NCBI RefSeq assembly: GCF_002355835.1
Contig: NZ_AP017459.1
Location: 496,001-560,000 of the forward strand
Source of the DNA: Candidatus Endomicrobiellum trichonymphae
GTDB lineage: Bacteria > Elusimicrobiota > Endomicrobiia > Endomicrobiales > Endomicrobiaceae
Direction of reading: 5' to 3'
DNA: 64,000 nucleotides
Positions 2,313 through 64,000 of the stretch are shown here, piece by piece (the stretch's first letter is position 1; the number at the start of each line of letters is the position of its first letter). The translations under genes and the position numbers were made by a program. The notes beneath the pieces were generated by a model, which ran no database searches, was not told where the DNA came from, and saw nothing but the letters and a program-made list of their open reading frames with translations.

Positions 2313-2963
2313 ATGTACTATGCGATAAAGGGACTAGTTCTCAACGCAAAAATACAAGGCGAGAATGATAAACTCATAACTGTTTATTCTTATGAATGGG
2401 GAAAGATTCAGGCGGTTGTTCCAAGCGCCAAAAAAATTGCGGCAAAACTTTCCTCAGCGACCGAACCTTTAACAGAAAGCGAGTTTATGGTTTTTGGCAG
2501 TTATCCTGTCCTGAGACCTAAAGTTACTGGAGCAAACATAATTGAAAATAATACGAAAATAAAAGTGGATTTCAAAAGAAACTTATATGCTTTATATGCT
2601 GCAGAAGTAAGTGATAAATTTGCTCCTTTTAATTTTGAAAATATCGTGAAATATAATTTAATAGTAAGAATTTGGCAAATACTCAGTATCTGTAAATATC
2701 CGAAACGAGCGCTTACTGCATTTATTTTGCGTTTTTTAAAACTTTCTGGATACGCTTTTTCTGATTATTTAAGGAATAATAAGGCTTTTGCTGGCATAGG
2801 AATTGAAAAGAGTATAGAAAGACTTTCAAATTGTTCAGGAGATAATATTGATGTACTTGAAGAAATTGAAGAAGAAAAAATTTGGAACTGTGTTGAGAAT
2901 TATCTTACAAATTACATACGACGACCCGCGTTGAGCGTTTTTTTGGAGAAAATCGGCGAATAA
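2313..2963 (+). CDS. recO: DNA repair protein RecO
   Basis: This 216-residue protein has the RecO N-terminal OB-fold start (AIKGLVLNAKIQGENDKLITVYSYEWGK) and the helical C-terminal part. RecO works with RecR to load RecA on SSB-coated DNA during gap repair. It is somewhat shorter than the typical ~240 residues, and I see no zinc-finger cysteine cluster. The frame is uninterrupted and bounded by pseudogenes on both sides, so its preservation suggests selection. The start ATG lies within an AT-rich leader after the second CBS remnant. Confidence 0.85.
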   Translation: MYYAIKGLVLNAKIQGENDKLITVYSYEWGKIQAVVPSAKKIAAKLSSATEPLTESEFMVFGSYPVLRPKVTGANIIENNTKIKVDFKRNLYALYAAEVSDKFAPFNFENIVKYNLIVRIWQILSICKYPKRALTAFILRFLKLSGYAFSDYLRNNKAFAGIGIEKSIERLSNCSGDNIDVLEEIEEEKIWNCVENYLTNYIRRPALSVFLEKIGE

Positions 2964-3176
2964 CATTTTTTACGGGTCTTGACGAAGTAAAAAAGGTGTT
3001 ATACTTCTAAAAATGAGTAAAGTCATTTTGATATAGGTTTGATTTTTGAATAGAAATGGCAAAAAGCGAGAAAAAGAATAAATTTGACGTATATGGTGCT
3101 TTTTTAATGAGCAGGCAGTAGGAATAGCGTGAATAAATTTAACGTATTACAGATATTTTTGTAAGGAGAAAAGAAG

Positions 3177-4257
3177 ATGCTTAATGACAGGGACACAGCT
3201 TTTATGATCATATGCACTGCGTTTGTGTTTATTATGACACCGGGACAGCCCTTTTTTACGGAAGCTTGGGACGCAGGAAGAATATGGTAAACAACATGAT
3301 GAATTCTGTATTTATCATGGGTCTTGGTATTGTTTTATATATGTTGTGATAGGTTATTCTCTGTTGTTTGTGGATGGGGGCGGCTGAAGTTTTATAGGAT
3401 CTCTTAAGAATTTCTGATTTTTAGACATTACAAAAGATTCTCTTATGGGCTCACTGCCTACATTTGTTTTTATTGCTTTCCAAATGATGTTTGCTTTTAT
3501 AACGCCGGCAATTATAACAGGCTCTGTGGCTGGCAGAATGAAATTTCAAACATTGTTTTTCTTTATAGCTTTGGTCAATCCTTGTATATATCCATTGGCG
3601 CACATGGCATGGTGGTTATCGTCGGTGAAATCGGAGTTCTTGATTTTGCAGTTGGAAATGTGCTACATATCAGTTCAGGCACAACCGGTCTTATTCTTGC
3701 AGTTTTGCTTGGCAAAAGAGTCGATTATGCGACAGACTTCATACCACATACATAATACCCCTCATGTTCTTATATGTATGGGACTTTTATGGTTTGGCTG
3801 GTTCGGTTTTCATGCAGGAAGCGCTCTAGCGGCAAACGGACTTGTGGCTCATGTATTTATGGCAACAGTTGCAATCTGCCGCTTTAGATTTAATTAACGT
3901 TATAGGCATAACCGTAAGTCCTGTCTGTTATTTTGGAATAGTACTTATCAAACGGATATTTAAGATTGACTATGCTTTAGATGCTTTTGGGCGACATGGC
4001 ATCGGCGGTATATGGGGCTGAATATTGAACGGCGTTTTTGTAAATCCTGCAATCAGCAGCGGAAAACCAGGACTTATTTTCGGAGAGACAGTGCAGTTTA
4101 TTTCACAAATTGAAGGCATAGTTATAGAGTACTTTATTATGCTCCGGAATTGCCAGTATATTTATGCCTCTTCTAGCGTCGTGTAGTAGATAAGAGAAGT
4201 GAACTTATGTCAAAACACGGTGAAAATGCGTACCCGTCATTCACCGGTTTGGATTAG
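3177..4257 (+). pseudogene. amtB: Ammonium transporter (Amt family), decayed
   Basis: An ATG with a good ribosome site (AAGGAG at 3163-3168) opens a frame reading NDRDTAFMIICTAFVFIMTPG, the normal Amt start. Stops and shifts soon follow. Later pieces in other frames are FVFIAFQMMFAFITPAIITG (3463 on), MGLLWFGWFGFHAGSAL (about 3778-3830), DALDAFGRHGIGGIWG (near 3975-4017, then a stop) and the C-terminal KHGENAYPSFTGLD ending at 4257. At least five disruptions make it inactive. Amt channels import ammonium under PII control; the PII gene follows in the usual order and is also broken. Confidence 0.9.
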
Positions 4258-56718: not shown

Positions 56719-57315
56719 ATGTGCAAAAACGCTGAAAAACAAATATTTGATTATTTATCTGAAAATTTAAGTCCTAAAAAACTCGAACATTCTTATAACG
56801 TCGCAATACTTGCCGCAGAACTTGCATCAAAACACAATCTGGATATAGTAAGGGTACGGACAGCAGGACTTCTGCATGATTGCGCAAAATTTATGACTGA
56901 CGAAGAATTTATTGATTTTTTTAAAAAGCGTGACAAAACCTTAAAATATTTTAAAAAAGATGTAATTAAATTTTCGCCTCACCTTTTACACTCTTTTGCG
57001 GGAGAAATTATTGCGAAAGAAAAATTTAAAATAAAAAACAGAGATACTTTAAATGCGATAAAGAATCACACTCTCGGAAGAAAAAATATGCGCGCCATTG
57101 AGAAAATAATCTTTGTTGCGGATTGTGTTTCATACGACAGAAAATTGGAAGATGCGAAAAGAATACGAAATCTGGCAAAAAATGATCTAAATAAAGCTTT
57201 TTTTGAAGTGCTTACAAAAAAAATAGAACATATTATTGACAAGGGCATGTGGTTATGCCCGAAGATTATAGATACATGGAATTGGTATGTTTCAAACAAT
57301 AAAAAAGATAATTAA
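56719..57315 (+). CDS. yqeK: HD-domain hydrolase YqeK
   Basis: The 198-residue protein has LEHSYNVAILAAELA, GLLHDCAKFM (HD), SFAGEIIAKEKF and IKNHTLGRKNM, then FVADCVSYDR. YqeK-type enzymes split diadenosine tetraphosphate symmetrically. Its position between nadD and the LytR_C gene is the usual one. The end overlaps the next gene by 29 bases. Confidence 0.9.
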   Translation: MCKNAEKQIFDYLSENLSPKKLEHSYNVAILAAELASKHNLDIVRVRTAGLLHDCAKFMTDEEFIDFFKKRDKTLKYFKKDVIKFSPHLLHSFAGEIIAKEKFKIKNRDTLNAIKNHTLGRKNMRAIEKIIFVADCVSYDRKLEDAKRIRNLAKNDLNKAFFEVLTKKIEHIIDKGMWLCPKIIDTWNWYVSNNKKDN

Positions 57316-58324
57316 AATATTAGCTCTTATTCTTCTTGTATTGATAACTGTAGCTGTATCTGCATATATCTATATCGATAAAAACGACGTAGTTACAAAA
57401 AAACTTAAAGGAAAAGATTATACCAGTTTTTCGATTTTACTGTACGGCACGGAAAAAATATTTCCCGGCCGCCTAGATGTATATACCGCTTTATATGACA
57501 AAAGAACTAATATTTTAAAAGTTTTGTCCGTAAACACTGATGCTGTCGTTCTTAAGAAAAGAGAAAAGGCAAGAAGCTTAAAAACGATGTTTAACGAAAA
57601 TTCAAAAAAAGACATAAATGCCGCAATAAAAAAACTCTATCTGGATTTGTATGAAATCATAGGTAACGCCGCTGCAGCCGATTTTTATATTAACACAACT
57701 TTTGAAATGTTCGATATTGCTGCCGGGCGAAATAAAAAATTTTTAAAAGATAATTTTGAAAACAGAGATTTAGAGTCTTTAAACCGACTTGAAACAGTGG
57801 AATATTTTATGCATTTGCCATCTCCTGCAATAATGAAAATATACAAAAATTACGGCTTTTTTGATACAAACATTCCCAAATTGTCTTTTATGTCGTCAGC
57901 TTTAAGAACAAAATCTTTAAAACCGATACTTATGTTTTGCGAAATGCCCGTAAAATACACAAAAGCAAGAGTTGAATTTGACAAACAAAACATTGAAGAA
58001 TTCTTAAATAAAATATATTATGCTGTCTCAGTTCCATATACAAATACAAAAGATGTGCTTATTGACATTAAAAACGCTTCAAAAAAACCGCGTATGGCAG
58101 AAAAAGCGGCATGGCTTCTAAGAAAAAATAAGCTTGATGTTTTGGAATGGAGCAATCTATATGCAACTTATGATAAGACTTTGATAAAAGATTATAAAGG
58201 AAATTTTATGCAAGCCTTAATAATTGCAGAAATCCTAAAGACAGGGAAAGTGATAGTTTCATATAATAATCGTATTTTTTCCGATATAGACATATTCATA
58301 GGCAAAGATTGTATAATAACATAA
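57287..58324 (+). CDS. LytR_C/LCP-like membrane-anchored protein
   Basis: The 345-residue protein has one N-terminal hydrophobic anchor (residues 8-29). A region reads SFSILLYGTEKIFPGRLDVYTALYD and VLSVNTDAVVL, recalling the start of the LytR-CpsA-Psr domain. The C-terminal LytR_C domain includes LIDIKNASKKPRMAEKAAWLL and FMQALIIAEIL. The middle does not show the arginine and aspartate pattern expected for an active LCP transferase. Placement between yqeK and rsfS supports the family. Its role in envelope polymer attachment is inferred. Confidence 0.7.
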   Translation: MFQTIKKIIKILALILLVLITVAVSAYIYIDKNDVVTKKLKGKDYTSFSILLYGTEKIFPGRLDVYTALYDKRTNILKVLSVNTDAVVLKKREKARSLKTMFNENSKKDINAAIKKLYLDLYEIIGNAAAADFYINTTFEMFDIAAGRNKKFLKDNFENRDLESLNRLETVEYFMHLPSPAIMKIYKNYGFFDTNIPKLSFMSSALRTKSLKPILMFCEMPVKYTKARVEFDKQNIEEFLNKIYYAVSVPYTNTKDVLIDIKNASKKPRMAEKAAWLLRKNKLDVLEWSNLYATYDKTLIKDYKGNFMQALIIAEILKTGKVIVSYNNRIFSDIDIFIGKDCIIT

Positions 58325-59115: not shown

Positions 59116-59799
59116 ATGAAATTAGAAGAATTTAAAACTAAATTTATAAAGTTAAAAGAAGAAGGATATATACTTTCTAAAAGAAGTGGTCCCACTGGTA
59201 TAGGATATACTTTAGAATCCTCTTTGGGAATTTTGGAAAATAATAATGCTAAACCGGATATAGAAGGTGCTGAACTAAAAGCTCATCGTACGAAAGAAAA
59301 ATCTCTTATCACGCTGTTTACTTTCAATAATAAAGTTTGGGAAATGCCGCCTTTGGAAGCAATTAAGAAATATGGCAGTCTTGATACAAATGGAAGAAAA
59401 GGATTATATTATACAATGTCTTTAAAACCTAATAGTACAGGATTGTTTCTTGAAGTTACAAAAGCAGCAATTTCAGTAAGGCATATATCTGGAGAGATAG
59501 TTGCTTCATGGAGTTTACAAAACTTAGCTGATAGATTTATTCAAAAAATACCGTCATTAATTTTTGTTTCAGCACATACGGAAGAAAGGGCAGGAAAAGA
59601 ATATTTCCATTTTTATCGTGCGCAATTAATGAAAGGGACTTCGTCGGAGTTATTAGAAAATCAATTTAAAGAAGAAAATATTTTAGTAGACTTAAGACTG
59701 CATGACAAAGGAACAAGCGCGCGAAATCATGGTACAGGCTTTAGGATTTATGAGCATAAAATGCCGGAGTTATTTAAGAGTATAGAGGACATAGTATGA
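59116..59799 (+). CDS. MvaI/BcnI-family type II restriction endonuclease
   Basis: The 227-residue protein starts KLEEFKTKFIKLKEEGYILS and has GPTGIGYTLESSLGI, typical for this family. The catalytic PD-(D/E)xK set is Asp48, Glu53 and Lys55 in KPDIEGAELKAH. MvaI and BcnI cut CCWGG and CCSGG as monomers; the exact site here cannot be read from sequence. ATG at 59116 fits the family start; a TTG at 59074 would add 14 residues. The stop overlaps the methyltransferase start by 4 bases. No disruption is visible. Confidence 0.9.
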   Translation: MKLEEFKTKFIKLKEEGYILSKRSGPTGIGYTLESSLGILENNNAKPDIEGAELKAHRTKEKSLITLFTFNNKVWEMPPLEAIKKYGSLDTNGRKGLYYTMSLKPNSTGLFLEVTKAAISVRHISGEIVASWSLQNLADRFIQKIPSLIFVSAHTEERAGKEYFHFYRAQLMKGTSSELLENQFKEENILVDLRLHDKGTSARNHGTGFRIYEHKMPELFKSIEDIV

Positions 59800-61022
59800 A
59801 ATATCTGATAACGAGAAATGAAAAATATGATTTTTTAGGACAGTCCTATGCTACGCAGTACCCGAATATTCATAAATATCCTGCTACTATGATTCCTCAA
59901 ATAGGAATAGAATTATTGAAAGAAATGAATATAGATAACGACAAACTTCTTGATCCGTATTGTGGTTCAGGTTCTTCTTTTACTGCAGGATTAGAAAATG
60001 GCTTTTCAGAAATGGATGGGTTTGATATTAATCCCTTAGCTGTTCTTATTTCAAGAACAAAATTCTCGAAAATAGATATAGATAAAGTTGAGATTATAAA
60101 ACAGAATTTACGAGGTGATATATATGATTTTATAAGACGGGAATATAATATAAGTAATATTCAAATTACGCAGTATGCCAATATTGATTATTGGTTTTCA
60201 AAGCCGGTTCTGCAAAACTTATCAGTATTGAAATGTTTTATAAATAAAATTGATAAAGATATTCAACAAATATTTTTGGTTCCATTTTCTGAAACAATAA
60301 GGGAATGTTCTTATACAAAAAACAATGAGTTCAAATTATATAGAATTAAACCGGAAGAGGTTTTACGATTTAATCCCGACGTATTTAGCGTTTTCTTTAA
60401 TAAATTAAATAAAATTATTGAAATATATAAGAAGTATTATCTGCCTAAAGTAAATAACTTAAAAGTTAATATACATTGCTCAGAGTTTGTAAATGCAAAT
60501 AGGAAATATGGTGTTGTATTGACAAGTCCGCCGTATGGCGATAGTTTTACAACTGTTGCTTATGGTCAGTTTTCTATGTTCAGCAATCAATGGCTTGGTT
60601 TTAAAAATGCAAGACAAATAGACAATATGCTTATGGGCGGACGCAATGTCAAACAAATATATAATAATAGTATTATAACTGACTATGTAAAAGAAATTTC
60701 AATAAAATCCTCTAAACGGGCATTAGAGGTTTCATCATTTTATTTTGACTTAGGCAGGTCAATAACAAATGTTGCCAAAAGCGTTAAAAAGAAAGGAGTT
60801 GTTTTTTACATAACTGGAAATAGAAGAGTGCAAGATGTTCAATTGCCGACGGATCAATTTATAGCTGAACAATTTGAACAAAATGGTTTTAATCATCTCT
60901 TTACCTATGAAAGGCTTTTATCAAATAAGTCAATGCCGTTAAAAAACTCGCCGTCTAATAAAGCAGGTTATACAAGAGACACTATGATGAAAGAATACAT
61001 TGTCGCAATGTCAAAACAATAA
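59796..61022 (+). CDS. Cognate DNA methyltransferase (probably N4-cytosine)
   Basis: The 408-residue enzyme has motif X-like residues ~28-40, motif I LLDPYCGSGSS (51-61), FDINPLAVLISRTKF (motif II region) and the catalytic TSPPYGDS (243-250), then YITGNRRVQ. SPPY is typical of N4-cytosine methylases, and MvaI/BcnI systems are known to use N4-methylcytosine; the base modified here is inferred. Motif I precedes motif IV, with the presumed target-recognition part between them. It protects host DNA from the overlapping endonuclease gene. Confidence 0.88.
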   Translation: MKYLITRNEKYDFLGQSYATQYPNIHKYPATMIPQIGIELLKEMNIDNDKLLDPYCGSGSSFTAGLENGFSEMDGFDINPLAVLISRTKFSKIDIDKVEIIKQNLRGDIYDFIRREYNISNIQITQYANIDYWFSKPVLQNLSVLKCFINKIDKDIQQIFLVPFSETIRECSYTKNNEFKLYRIKPEEVLRFNPDVFSVFFNKLNKIIEIYKKYYLPKVNNLKVNIHCSEFVNANRKYGVVLTSPPYGDSFTTVAYGQFSMFSNQWLGFKNARQIDNMLMGGRNVKQIYNNSIITDYVKEISIKSSKRALEVSSFYFDLGRSITNVAKSVKKKGVVFYITGNRRVQDVQLPTDQFIAEQFEQNGFNHLFTYERLLSNKSMPLKNSPSNKAGYTRDTMMKEYIVAMSKQ

Positions 61023-61036
61023 ATATATCTGGTTTA

Positions 61037-62465
61037 TTATAATACTAGATTATCTTTTAGTTCATTAACGTAGTTATTAATATTACCTTCAGGAATATCG
61101 TACATATCTTTTATCCTTGTACAAACAAATCTAAACTCATCGCTAAATCTCCTTTGAAAACCAATCCGTTCAAACAAACTAAAGTATTCCAAAATTTTAA
61201 TTTTTTCTTTTGTTTCTTTGGAATCAATCAGTTTTTCATCACTTACGTATTTAAGCCAGATATCGTCAAGATTTTCTAAATATTGTTCCGGATTTTTTAA
61301 AATATTCTCTGCAACAATTATTGCTGCCCTGGCAAATCCTTCGCAAAGTCTTACTATTTTATTACAAGTGTTATTCGGCAGGGTTGGAGAATCCTCTTTA
61401 ATAAGTCCCAAAAGAGCAGATTCTGTATAAATACTTTATCTTCATCAACTCTTCTTGTATCAACAAAATTAGAATTATATATAGTAATAAGTTTTAAATT
61501 ACTCACATTGTACTCAACATCATTAAATATTTGTTTTGCATTTTTACTATCACATTCGTCAATAACCAAAATCAAAGACACATTTTTATTTATATTAATA
61601 TAGTTTTTCAATCTTGAATTATTATATTCTTCAGGGGATTTAAAAAAGATACAATTACGCTTTAAATCATTGTCGCTTAATATTTGAATAACTGTCTTTG
61701 TTTTACCTATTCCCGATGCTCCTAATATTCTTATATGCATAGCTATATTGCTTTTGTTTTGAGCTTTCAATAATTTTAGAGCGCTGGAAATAATATTTGT
61801 TCTATGCTCATCTTCAAAATATTTGTTTTTCAAATCGCTCTGTTGAGATATAGTTTTATATAAAGTATAAGCTGAACTTATTAGTTCTGTCTTTATATTT
61901 AACAATAAGCATGGATAATTTTTTTCATAACGCTATTTATATGTTCATATCCCCACACATGTACCTTACAATTAGAATAACCGCATTGATTAAAGTATTC
62001 TTTAAGAAAATTAATCGCGGCAATTCGATCTTTTTCTACGAATGTATGTTTAAATGTCACATAAACATAAGCAGCCTCATTATCTAAACAGTCTCTAATA
62101 GCAGGTTTTAGTTTATTTTTTATCTCATGTGTCCGTTTGGGGGGATCTCTCGTTAATTTATCAATTTCTTCAATATTGCAGCCAAATAATTCGTTTACAA
62201 TAGTACTTTTATTCCAAGGCTTGCTACCAGATTCTGTCTTTATTTGAAAACGAACATCATCAGCAATAATAATATCGCTTCTTATACCATTCATGCTTTT
62301 TATAACAGCATCAATGCCGCCATCAGGACATGTTATATCTTGGGAGCAATTAATGTAAGTCAGCGGAATGCCATTTTTGACTGCTTCCAAACGAAGAAGT
62401 TCTTTAAATAAATTAACAGCTTCTTCAGGTTTATAATTTGACAACTCTTTGCTTAACTTGAACAT
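61037..62465 (-). pseudogene. Nuclease-STAND ATPase defence gene, 5' part (inverted)
   Basis: On the minus strand a start at 62465 (MFKLSKEL), with AAGGAG 7 bases upstream, opens a nuclease-like domain with DGGIDA and FQIKTES, a PD-(D/E)xK pattern. The frame slips at a run of seven A (61919-61925) into an ATPase part with IRILGASGIGKTKT (Walker A) and LILVIDECDS (Walker B). It slips again near 61420 into helical and winged-helix sequence RLCEGFARAAI and NNYVNELKDNL, and ends at 61037. The order nuclease-NTPase-winged helix matches STAND/Avs-like anti-phage proteins. The sensor part is missing here and appears on the other strand. Confidence 0.75.
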
Positions 62466-62505
62466 ACAAATGCTCCTTGTTCCATACTATCTGTTTATGC
62501 ATATA

Positions 62506-64000
62506 CTGCAAGGAGAAACCACTTTATATATTTCTTCAAGAATTTTCCAAAACTGGCTCAAAAAAAATTGGTGGAAGAAAAATGTTCATGCATTTAAATA
62601 TGAAGGATTTGCAGAAAATATGCCAGAAACTTTAGTAGAATTTTTTAATAAAGAATTGCCAGAATGCCCGACGGATGTTAAAGATAACATACTTCAAAAC
62701 CAATTTGATAATTACAATGACATAAATAACAAAAAAAATTATTTCAAAGTATAGCTTGTCAACGAAATAACAATGTTTTTGAGAAACTAAAAAAAAAAAA
62801 AACGAGAATTTAAATGAAGAAACTCTTTCTAGTGTAGATGGAGACATACAAGCTTTACTTACATATTATGCTAAGAGTACTGTTTATTTTACAAAAAGTT
62901 GCGATTTACTATTTAAAATTGCAGTCTTTGAAAATGGAAATACAGCAGAATCATTTTTTGCAGATTTGTTCACTATTTTTTATAACTCAGTGGATATGGC
63001 AAATACATACGCTTCATTGCCGGACAAGATTGATTATTTGAATAGTTTAATTAAATTAAAAAAAACGAAAAGAGAAATACTAATAATATTAAAAGCTATT
63101 GAGCAAGGCATACAAAATCCTTTGCATAATAGCAAACACGAATATGACTCTAATAAATTTATTGTTAAAATTTTAAGACAATTCAGTTTTAAAGATGCAG
63201 AATTGAGATATATAGATGATTTATTTAAATTAACATTAACAATTTTAGGACAAAGCCCTGATGCTGAGATTATAAAAAAATGTAATTATATATTTAATAG
63301 AATTGCTTTTTATTTATTACAAAATAACGAAACATTCAAAGTTGCTTTAAATCGGTATAAAGAACTAATAAATACTAAAAAGTATGATGTTTTTGAATTT
63401 ATAAGAAGTCTTGACGATGCGTGCAGATATAATTGGATTAAAGAGTTGAATGAAGAAAATATTAGTAAACTGCGTATATTTTATGAAGATTTAAAAAACA
63501 CAAATAAACTTACAGATTTGAAGATTTTTTGTATGCAATATCCGCCTCTTCGTCAAGACGAAGAGAATGAGATATTTAATAATTTAGTGAATATTACAGA
63601 TTTAGAAGAAAATAAAATGCTTGAGTTTTTGTTTTCCGACAAATCTAATTTATCATTTGATGTCGGTATGAAAAAAGCAGCAGGCGACAACGATTTGAGT
63701 ATATTCAAAAAAATTGTAGATAAATATATAGAGTTAAAAGCTCCTAAAAACATAGATTTAATAATCGGGTACTTTCGCGGTTTATATGAAAAAAATCAAG
63801 ATACTTTTGATGATACAGTACTCAGAATTGATTGTAAGTCGCCACTATATACAATTTTGCCGGATATTATTAATACAATACCTACAGATAAAACTGTAAA
63901 ACATTTATTTAATTTGATTAAAAGCAATAAATTTTCTATTACTGATTTAAAATCAAGAATAAGTCGATGTTCAAAACAATTATTGACTGAAGTTATTGAA
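62506..64000 (+). pseudogene. Nuclease-STAND ATPase defence gene, 3' part (sensor repeats)
   Basis: Plus-strand reading from 62506 gives LQGETTLYISSRIFQNWLKK, which looks like the continuation of the winged helix that ends at 61037 on the other strand. NWWKK and ENMPETLVEFFNKELPE follow. Frames then change at a run of eight A (62731-62738) and a run of 14 A (62789-62802). From about 62803 a single frame stays open to the right edge (over 390 codons), with helical repeat-like sequence such as KSCDLLFKIAVFENGNTAESFF. Such helical arrays form the sensor of STAND proteins. The gene continues beyond the window. Not functional as arranged. Confidence 0.65.

What the first reader, a model, noticed from the sequence alone, without database searches (positions are those of the whole stretch)
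61023..64000. A defence gene split by an apparent 1.46-kb inversion, head on minus, tail on plus
The minus-strand reading (62465 to 61037) carries nuclease, ATPase and winged-helix parts and ends ELKDNLV. The plus-strand reading from 62506 starts LQGETTLYISSR and continues as winged helix plus helical repeats. Joining 61043 (complement) to 62506 gives one sensible protein. Flipping 61043-62505 back would place the start, with a good ribosome site, about 60 bases downstream of the methyltransferase stop, on the same strand. A three-gene defence operon (endonuclease, methyltransferase, nuclease-STAND ATPase) with an inverted 5' segment is unusual. It could be a relic of decay, or a switchable locus.
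Basis: partly seen in the sequence, partly recalled or inferred. Interest (0 to 1): 0.8.

Follow-up and report, generated by a model that had tools for sequence, protein, structure and literature searches.

The report
Inverted, decayed symbiont defence gene
A bacterial anti-virus gene in a termite-gut protist symbiont really was cut in two by a flipped 1.4-kb segment, but it also carries five frame-breaking changes, so it is a dead gene and not a genetic switch.

Summary
The closest relative found, Ca. Endomicrobiellum agilis TA26, has an unbroken 1223-aa gene at the same place, between the same MvaI/BcnI-type methyltransferase and the same tsaB-like gene. Its residues 4-470 match the window's minus strand (62465-61040) and 468-1220 match the plus strand (62500 to about 64767). 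A 1.43-1.46 kb inversion inside one ancestral gene is well supported; the ends fall in 61036-61052 and 62479-62500. Distant homologues on plasmids are single ORFs of 1233-1302 aa, several matching continuously across the break.

The 'switch' reading is not supported. Besides the inversion, the frame is broken five times (two in the inverted head, three in the tail), four at A/T runs of 7 or more. dN/dS is 0.35, against 0.10-0.17 for five flanking genes. No inverted repeat above chance lies at the ends, and no serine recombinase was found in the genome. Flipping the segment back would not give a working protein.

The gene is a pseudogene of a PD-(D/E)XK nuclease-STAND ATPase, distantly related to PD-Lambda-4_A, beside a conserved R-M pair. 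Decay of defence systems is already published for this lineage. I could not test whether orientation varies between strains or is an assembly error.

The parts
59119..59799 (+). MvaI/BcnI-family restriction endonuclease (type II), intact
   Evidence: Pfam PF15515 E 1.4e-40; dN/dS 0.13 against the relative; the ORF listing gives 59074 as the first possible start
59796..61022 (+). Type II DNA methyltransferase, intact; left flank of the inversion
   Evidence: PADLOC MTase_II PDLC03322 E 1.3e-97; 86% aa identity to the relative, dN/dS 0.10
61036..61052 (.). Interval that holds the left inversion breakpoint
   Evidence: Collinear match to the relative ends at 61035 on plus; inverted match ends at 61053
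61040..62465 (-). Inverted 5' part of the nuclease-STAND ATPase pseudogene (relative's residues 4-470), in three reading frames
   Evidence: tblastn 63-67% identity; frames change at about 61925 and about 61430
62237..62320 (-). PD-(D/E)XK-type nuclease motif region (DGGIDA ... FQIKT), catalytic-type residues kept
   Evidence: D51 G52 G53 D55 Q77 K79 invariant in six homologues; same residues in the window translation
61690..61735 (-). Walker A (GASGIGKT) of the ATPase part; Walker B (LILVIDEC) follows at about 61552-61578
   Evidence: Weak Pfam AAA / nSTAND_NTPase5 matches; G244 G247 G249 K250 T251 and D298 invariant
62472..62478 (-). Ribosome-site-like CAAGGAG upstream of the ATG at 62465
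   Evidence: Read directly
62479..62500 (.). Interval that holds the right inversion breakpoint
   Evidence: The start with its ribosome site lies left of it; the collinear match restarts at 62500/62501
62500..64000 (+). 3' part of the same pseudogene (relative's residues 468 onward), in the ancestral orientation; continues about 770 bases past the window's end (to L003:4767), then a tsaB-like gene on the other strand
   Evidence: tblastn; L003 ORFs
62789..62802 (+). A14 run at one of the frame breaks in the tail

Best explanation
An ancestor of this Endomicrobium-type symbiont and of Ca. E. agilis carried a type II R-M pair followed by a gene of about 1220 codons for a PD-(D/E)XK nuclease fused to a STAND-type ATPase and a long C-terminal region (inferred function: an NTP-gated sensor-effector that cuts nucleic acid on infection). 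In the window's lineage that third gene was inactivated. It picked up five frame-breaking indels, mostly by slippage at A/T runs, and its 5' 1.43-1.46 kb was inverted by a rare repeat-independent event between the end of the methyltransferase gene and codon ~470. It is now a pseudogene. The R-M pair next to it is still under selection. Shown: the inversion relative to an intact ortholog, the five frame breaks, the raised dN/dS, and the lack of switch hardware at the ends. Inferred: the order of inversion and frameshifts, the mechanism of the inversion, and the ancestral function.
For: Intact syntenic ortholog with both flanks matching. Head and tail map to opposite strands in register. Distant plasmid-borne homologues are single ORFs of 1233-1302 aa, with tblastn matches continuous over the break, query 9-958 and 1-637. 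Conserved columns lie on both sides of residue 470. Five net frame changes, four at A/T runs of 7 or more, although sites near such runs make up 4.8% of the gene. dN/dS is 0.35 over 1148 codons, against 0.10-0.17 for the REase, MTase, tsaB, tsaE and thiL-like neighbours. Best inverted match between the ends is no better than random pairs (P 0.64) and the direct match is not significant (P 0.11). No PF00239 recombinase in the genome, although the same search finds it in 10 of 14 controls; the two PF00589 hits, in open frames of 296 and 317 aa, lie 400 kb away and are of XerC/XerD size.
Against: The polarisation rests on one close relative plus distant homologues. STAND defence proteins may evolve faster than housekeeping genes even when alive, which could explain part of the raised dN/dS; rsfS in this region is also at 0.30. 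No second strain or read data could be inspected.
Confidence: 0.92

Rival explanations
1. Phase-variable switch: the 5' segment flips back and forth, turning the defence gene on and off.
For: A clean inversion with little or no loss at either end; the start codon and ribosome site travel inside the segment.
Against: The restored gene would still be out of frame at five places. No inverted repeats at the ends. No serine invertase found in the genome; only two XerC/D-sized tyrosine recombinases, far away.
Confidence: 0.02
2. Assembly or amplification artefact: the inverted orientation is a chimera (whole-genome amplification often makes inverted chimeras; own knowledge) and the real chromosome is collinear but still frameshifted.
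For: Genomes of such symbionts are often made from amplified DNA of few cells (own knowledge); only one assembly of this species is held.
Against: Two independent joins, one at each end, both without detectable loss, would be needed. The genome is 99.6% complete in 4 contigs, so the place is assembled through.
Confidence: 0.06
3. Two separate divergent genes, head and tail each a protein in its own right.
For: The head keeps ATG, ribosome site and nuclease motifs.
Against: The relative and distant homologues have them as one protein. Head and tail are each broken in frame. The tail has no start of its own at the break.
Confidence: 0.01
4. Frame breaks at A runs are partly bridged by transcriptional slippage, so fragments are still made, as proposed for some insect symbionts (own knowledge).
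For: Four of five breaks lie at A/T runs of 7 to 14.
Against: Slippage cannot join the inverted head to the tail; one break is not at a run; dN/dS is raised in every segment.
Confidence: 0.03

Closest known systems
Unbroken ortholog in Ca. Endomicrobiellum agilis TA26 (L004:5992-9663)
   Same: Same locus, same neighbours (RsfS, MvaI/BcnI REase, MTase, tsaB-like), 67% aa identity in aligned codons
   Different: Single 1223-codon frame, no inversion
PD-Lambda-4_A (PADLOC PDLC03991/PDLC03990)
   Same: All six homologues aligned match the model; the E. agilis protein matches with residues 30-385 to model 30-389 at E 1.3e-13, and one homologue reaches 5.8e-111
   Different: The Endomicrobium protein matches only the N-terminal third of the model; no neighbouring gene scanned matched a second PD-Lambda-4 component; the window copy is broken
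STAND/Avs-like sensor-effectors
   Same: Nuclease domain followed by P-loop ATPase with weak nSTAND_NTPase5 and AAA matches, then a long C-terminal region
   Different: No Pfam STAND model above its cut-off; no solved structure matched by the single sequence, and only weak NB-ARC-type hits by the profile, E 0.075 or worse; the C-terminal region was not shown to be a repeat sensor
Decaying defence systems of Ca. Endomicrobium trichonymphae (Izawa et al. 2016, cited in PMC11257099)
   Same: Broken defence genes in this group of symbionts are a published theme (title seen)
   Different: I could not read that paper, so whether this locus is listed there is unknown

Membership tests
PD-Lambda-4_A-like nuclease-ATPase (ancestral protein) | Sequence match to the PADLOC model over its length | tested here: inconclusive
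   Intact ortholog matches model 30-389 of 1283 only, E 1.3e-13
PD-Lambda-4_A-like nuclease-ATPase (ancestral protein) | PD-(D/E)XK-type residues and Walker A/B in order | tested here: met
   Invariant D51 G52 G53 D55 Q77 K79, G244-T251, D298 over six proteins
PD-Lambda-4 system | Second component beside the A protein (PADLOC naming, own knowledge) | tested here: not met
   Neighbouring REase and MTase match R-M models only, and the downstream neighbour is a housekeeping tsaB-like gene
STAND/Avs | STAND NTPase domain above the curated cut-off | tested here: not met
   nSTAND_NTPase5 15-16 bits against a cut-off of 34
Invertible (phase-variable) element | Inverted repeats at both ends of the segment | tested here: not met
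   Best inverted match between the ends no better than chance, P 0.64
Invertible (phase-variable) element | Site-specific invertase in the genome or nearby | tested here: not met
   No PF00239 hit; two XerC/D-sized PF00589 hits about 400 kb away
Invertible (phase-variable) element | One orientation encodes a full protein | tested here: not met
   Five frame breaks besides the inversion
Invertible (phase-variable) element | Both orientations present in the population | not testable with these tools
   No reads or second strain held
Pseudogene | Disrupted frame with an intact ortholog at the same locus | tested here: met
Pseudogene | Relaxed constraint relative to neighbours | tested here: met
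   dN/dS 0.35 against 0.10-0.17 for five neighbours; rsfS is at 0.30

The most novel reading that the evidence does not exclude
The segment's orientation is polymorphic in the symbiont population, with a minority of cells or sister strains carrying the uninverted and perhaps unbroken gene, so that the inversion captures the loss of a defence gene in progress.
Probability: 0.04. Interest if true: 0.4.

Novelty: new member of a known kind. Interest (0 to 1): 0.17.

Why it matters
It is a clear example, set against an intact ortholog, of how a reduced symbiont genome loses a large defence gene while the adjoining restriction-modification pair stays conserved, which fits the idea that R-M pairs are harder to lose. 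It also corrects the switch reading: a gene split over two strands is not evidence of regulation when the rest of the frame is already broken.

Tried and rejected
Phase variation: tested by repeat search at the ends, comparison with random pairs, recombinase search and frame analysis; rejected. Divergent two-gene arrangement: rejected by the intact ortholog. A short direct match at the two ends (TATCTGGTTTAT.TATAATACT against TATCTG-TTTATGCAT-ATACT) looked like a repeat by eye but is not significant (P 0.11). Viral contigs gave no close relative. PDB by sequence and by profile gave nothing significant. Pfam names the ATPase only weakly. The two papers most likely to list this locus (PMC5174739, PMC4760077) are not held. 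No structure prediction was run, because the identity of the gene was already clear from the ortholog.

Full report
What was claimed.

Is it there? Yes. A scan of bacterial and archaeal genomes with the first 188 residues of the head found one relative, Ca. Endomicrobiellum agilis TA26 (locus L004; the same gene sequence is in genome G025). There the gene is a single frame of 1223 codons, 46 bp after the same methyltransferase and followed by the same tsaB-like gene on the other strand (for the window side). tblastn of that protein on the window's chromosome puts residues 4-470 on the minus strand and 468-1220 on the plus strand at 63-67% identity. At DNA level there are three blocks: plus to 61035, minus 62465 to 61053, plus from 62501. 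The breakpoints are therefore in 61036-61052 and 62479-62500, and the segment is 1.43-1.46 kb.

Independent check that head and tail are one protein. tblastn of the relative's protein on plasmids finds distant homologues in haloarchaea, cyanobacteria, rhizobia and others. Five that I fetched are single ORFs of 1233-1302 aa, and several match continuously over residue 470 (query 9-958 and 1-637). An alignment of six proteins has invariant columns on both sides of the break.

What kind of protein. The N-terminal part has the invariant pattern D51-G-G-x-D55 ... Q77-x-K79, as in PD-(D/E)XK nucleases (motif reading, own knowledge). It is followed by GxxGxGKT and a VDEC Walker B, with weak AAA and nSTAND_NTPase5 matches. 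PADLOC names all six homologues PD-Lambda-4_A, one at E 5.8e-111; the Endomicrobium protein matches only the first third of the model. A review lists a P-loop NTPase for PD-lambda-4 (PMC10952713). Nothing solved matches significantly.

Is it alive? No. Apart from the inversion there are five net frame changes: near 61925 and 61430 in the head, and near 62730, 62800 and 64135 (bases past the window's end counted on) in the tail. Four of the five lie at A/T runs of 7 or more, whereas positions within 6 nt of such runs make up 4.8% of the gene. That is what slippage indels in an A+T-rich symbiont would look like. Nei-Gojobori dN/dS against the relative is 0.35 over 1148 codons, similar in the inverted and uninverted parts, against 0.13 (REase), 0.10 (MTase), 0.17 (tsaB), 0.14 (tsaE) and 0.13 (thiL-like); rsfS is at 0.30. 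If a living copy had dN/dS of about 0.13, the value corresponds to the window's gene having been unconstrained for roughly half of its branch (simple average, inference).

Is it a switch? The ends carry no inverted repeat better than chance (P 0.64) and no significant direct one (P 0.11). The genome gave no serine recombinase, although the same search finds one in 10 of 14 controls. Its two tyrosine recombinases are of XerC/XerD size and lie 400 kb away. Flipping the segment back would leave five frame breaks. The switch reading therefore fails on three separate counts. What remains untested is whether the orientation varies between strains; no second strain or reads are held here.

How common is the third gene? 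Of 77 genomes of the family, only the window's genome and the E. agilis one carry it; a third genome gave only a 47-position match to the ATPase part. R-M pairs of the same MvaI/BcnI family occur in several other genomes of the genus, but where the flanks could be read they lie at other places and without this gene, in one case beside a HATPase-type protein. The three genes are therefore a local combination seen in two related lineages, not a conserved operon.

Where it fits. The window's genome (1.13 Mb, 4 contigs, 99.6% complete) and its relatives point to an Endomicrobium/Endomicrobiellum symbiont of termite-gut flagellates, probably Ca. Endomicrobium trichonymphae (inference; record names are withheld). 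[quoted passage not shown] Those 2016 papers are not held, so I cannot say whether this locus is already listed. A dead defence gene beside a conserved R-M pair fits that published picture.

Verdict. The decay reading is supported at about 0.92, the switch reading at about 0.02, and an assembly artefact of the orientation cannot be excluded (about 0.06). Ordinary in kind, well documented by an intact ortholog; low interest.

Noticed in passing
L004:1234-2634: In E. agilis a plasmid-type replication initiator gene (Rep3_N, E 3.1e-7) lies about 0.8 kb upstream of rsfS and the R-M block. It is followed by a 148-aa piece (2770-3216) that resembles part of the window's 345-aa gene at 57287-58324, which suggests that a plasmid fragment integrated there.
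   Followed up: partly
L024:4763-6697: In another genome of the genus (G005) the same R-M family is followed about 200 bp downstream on the same strand by a 644-aa HATPase-type protein (PF13589), a possible alternative defence partner.
   Followed up: no
L025:10477-11164: The REase of the same R-M family is frameshifted in G010 (two frames) while its MTase is intact, so restriction appears to be lost before methylation there.
   Followed up: no
window 59796-59799: REase stop and MTase start overlap (ATGA) in the window, as is common for a coupled R-M pair.
   Followed up: no
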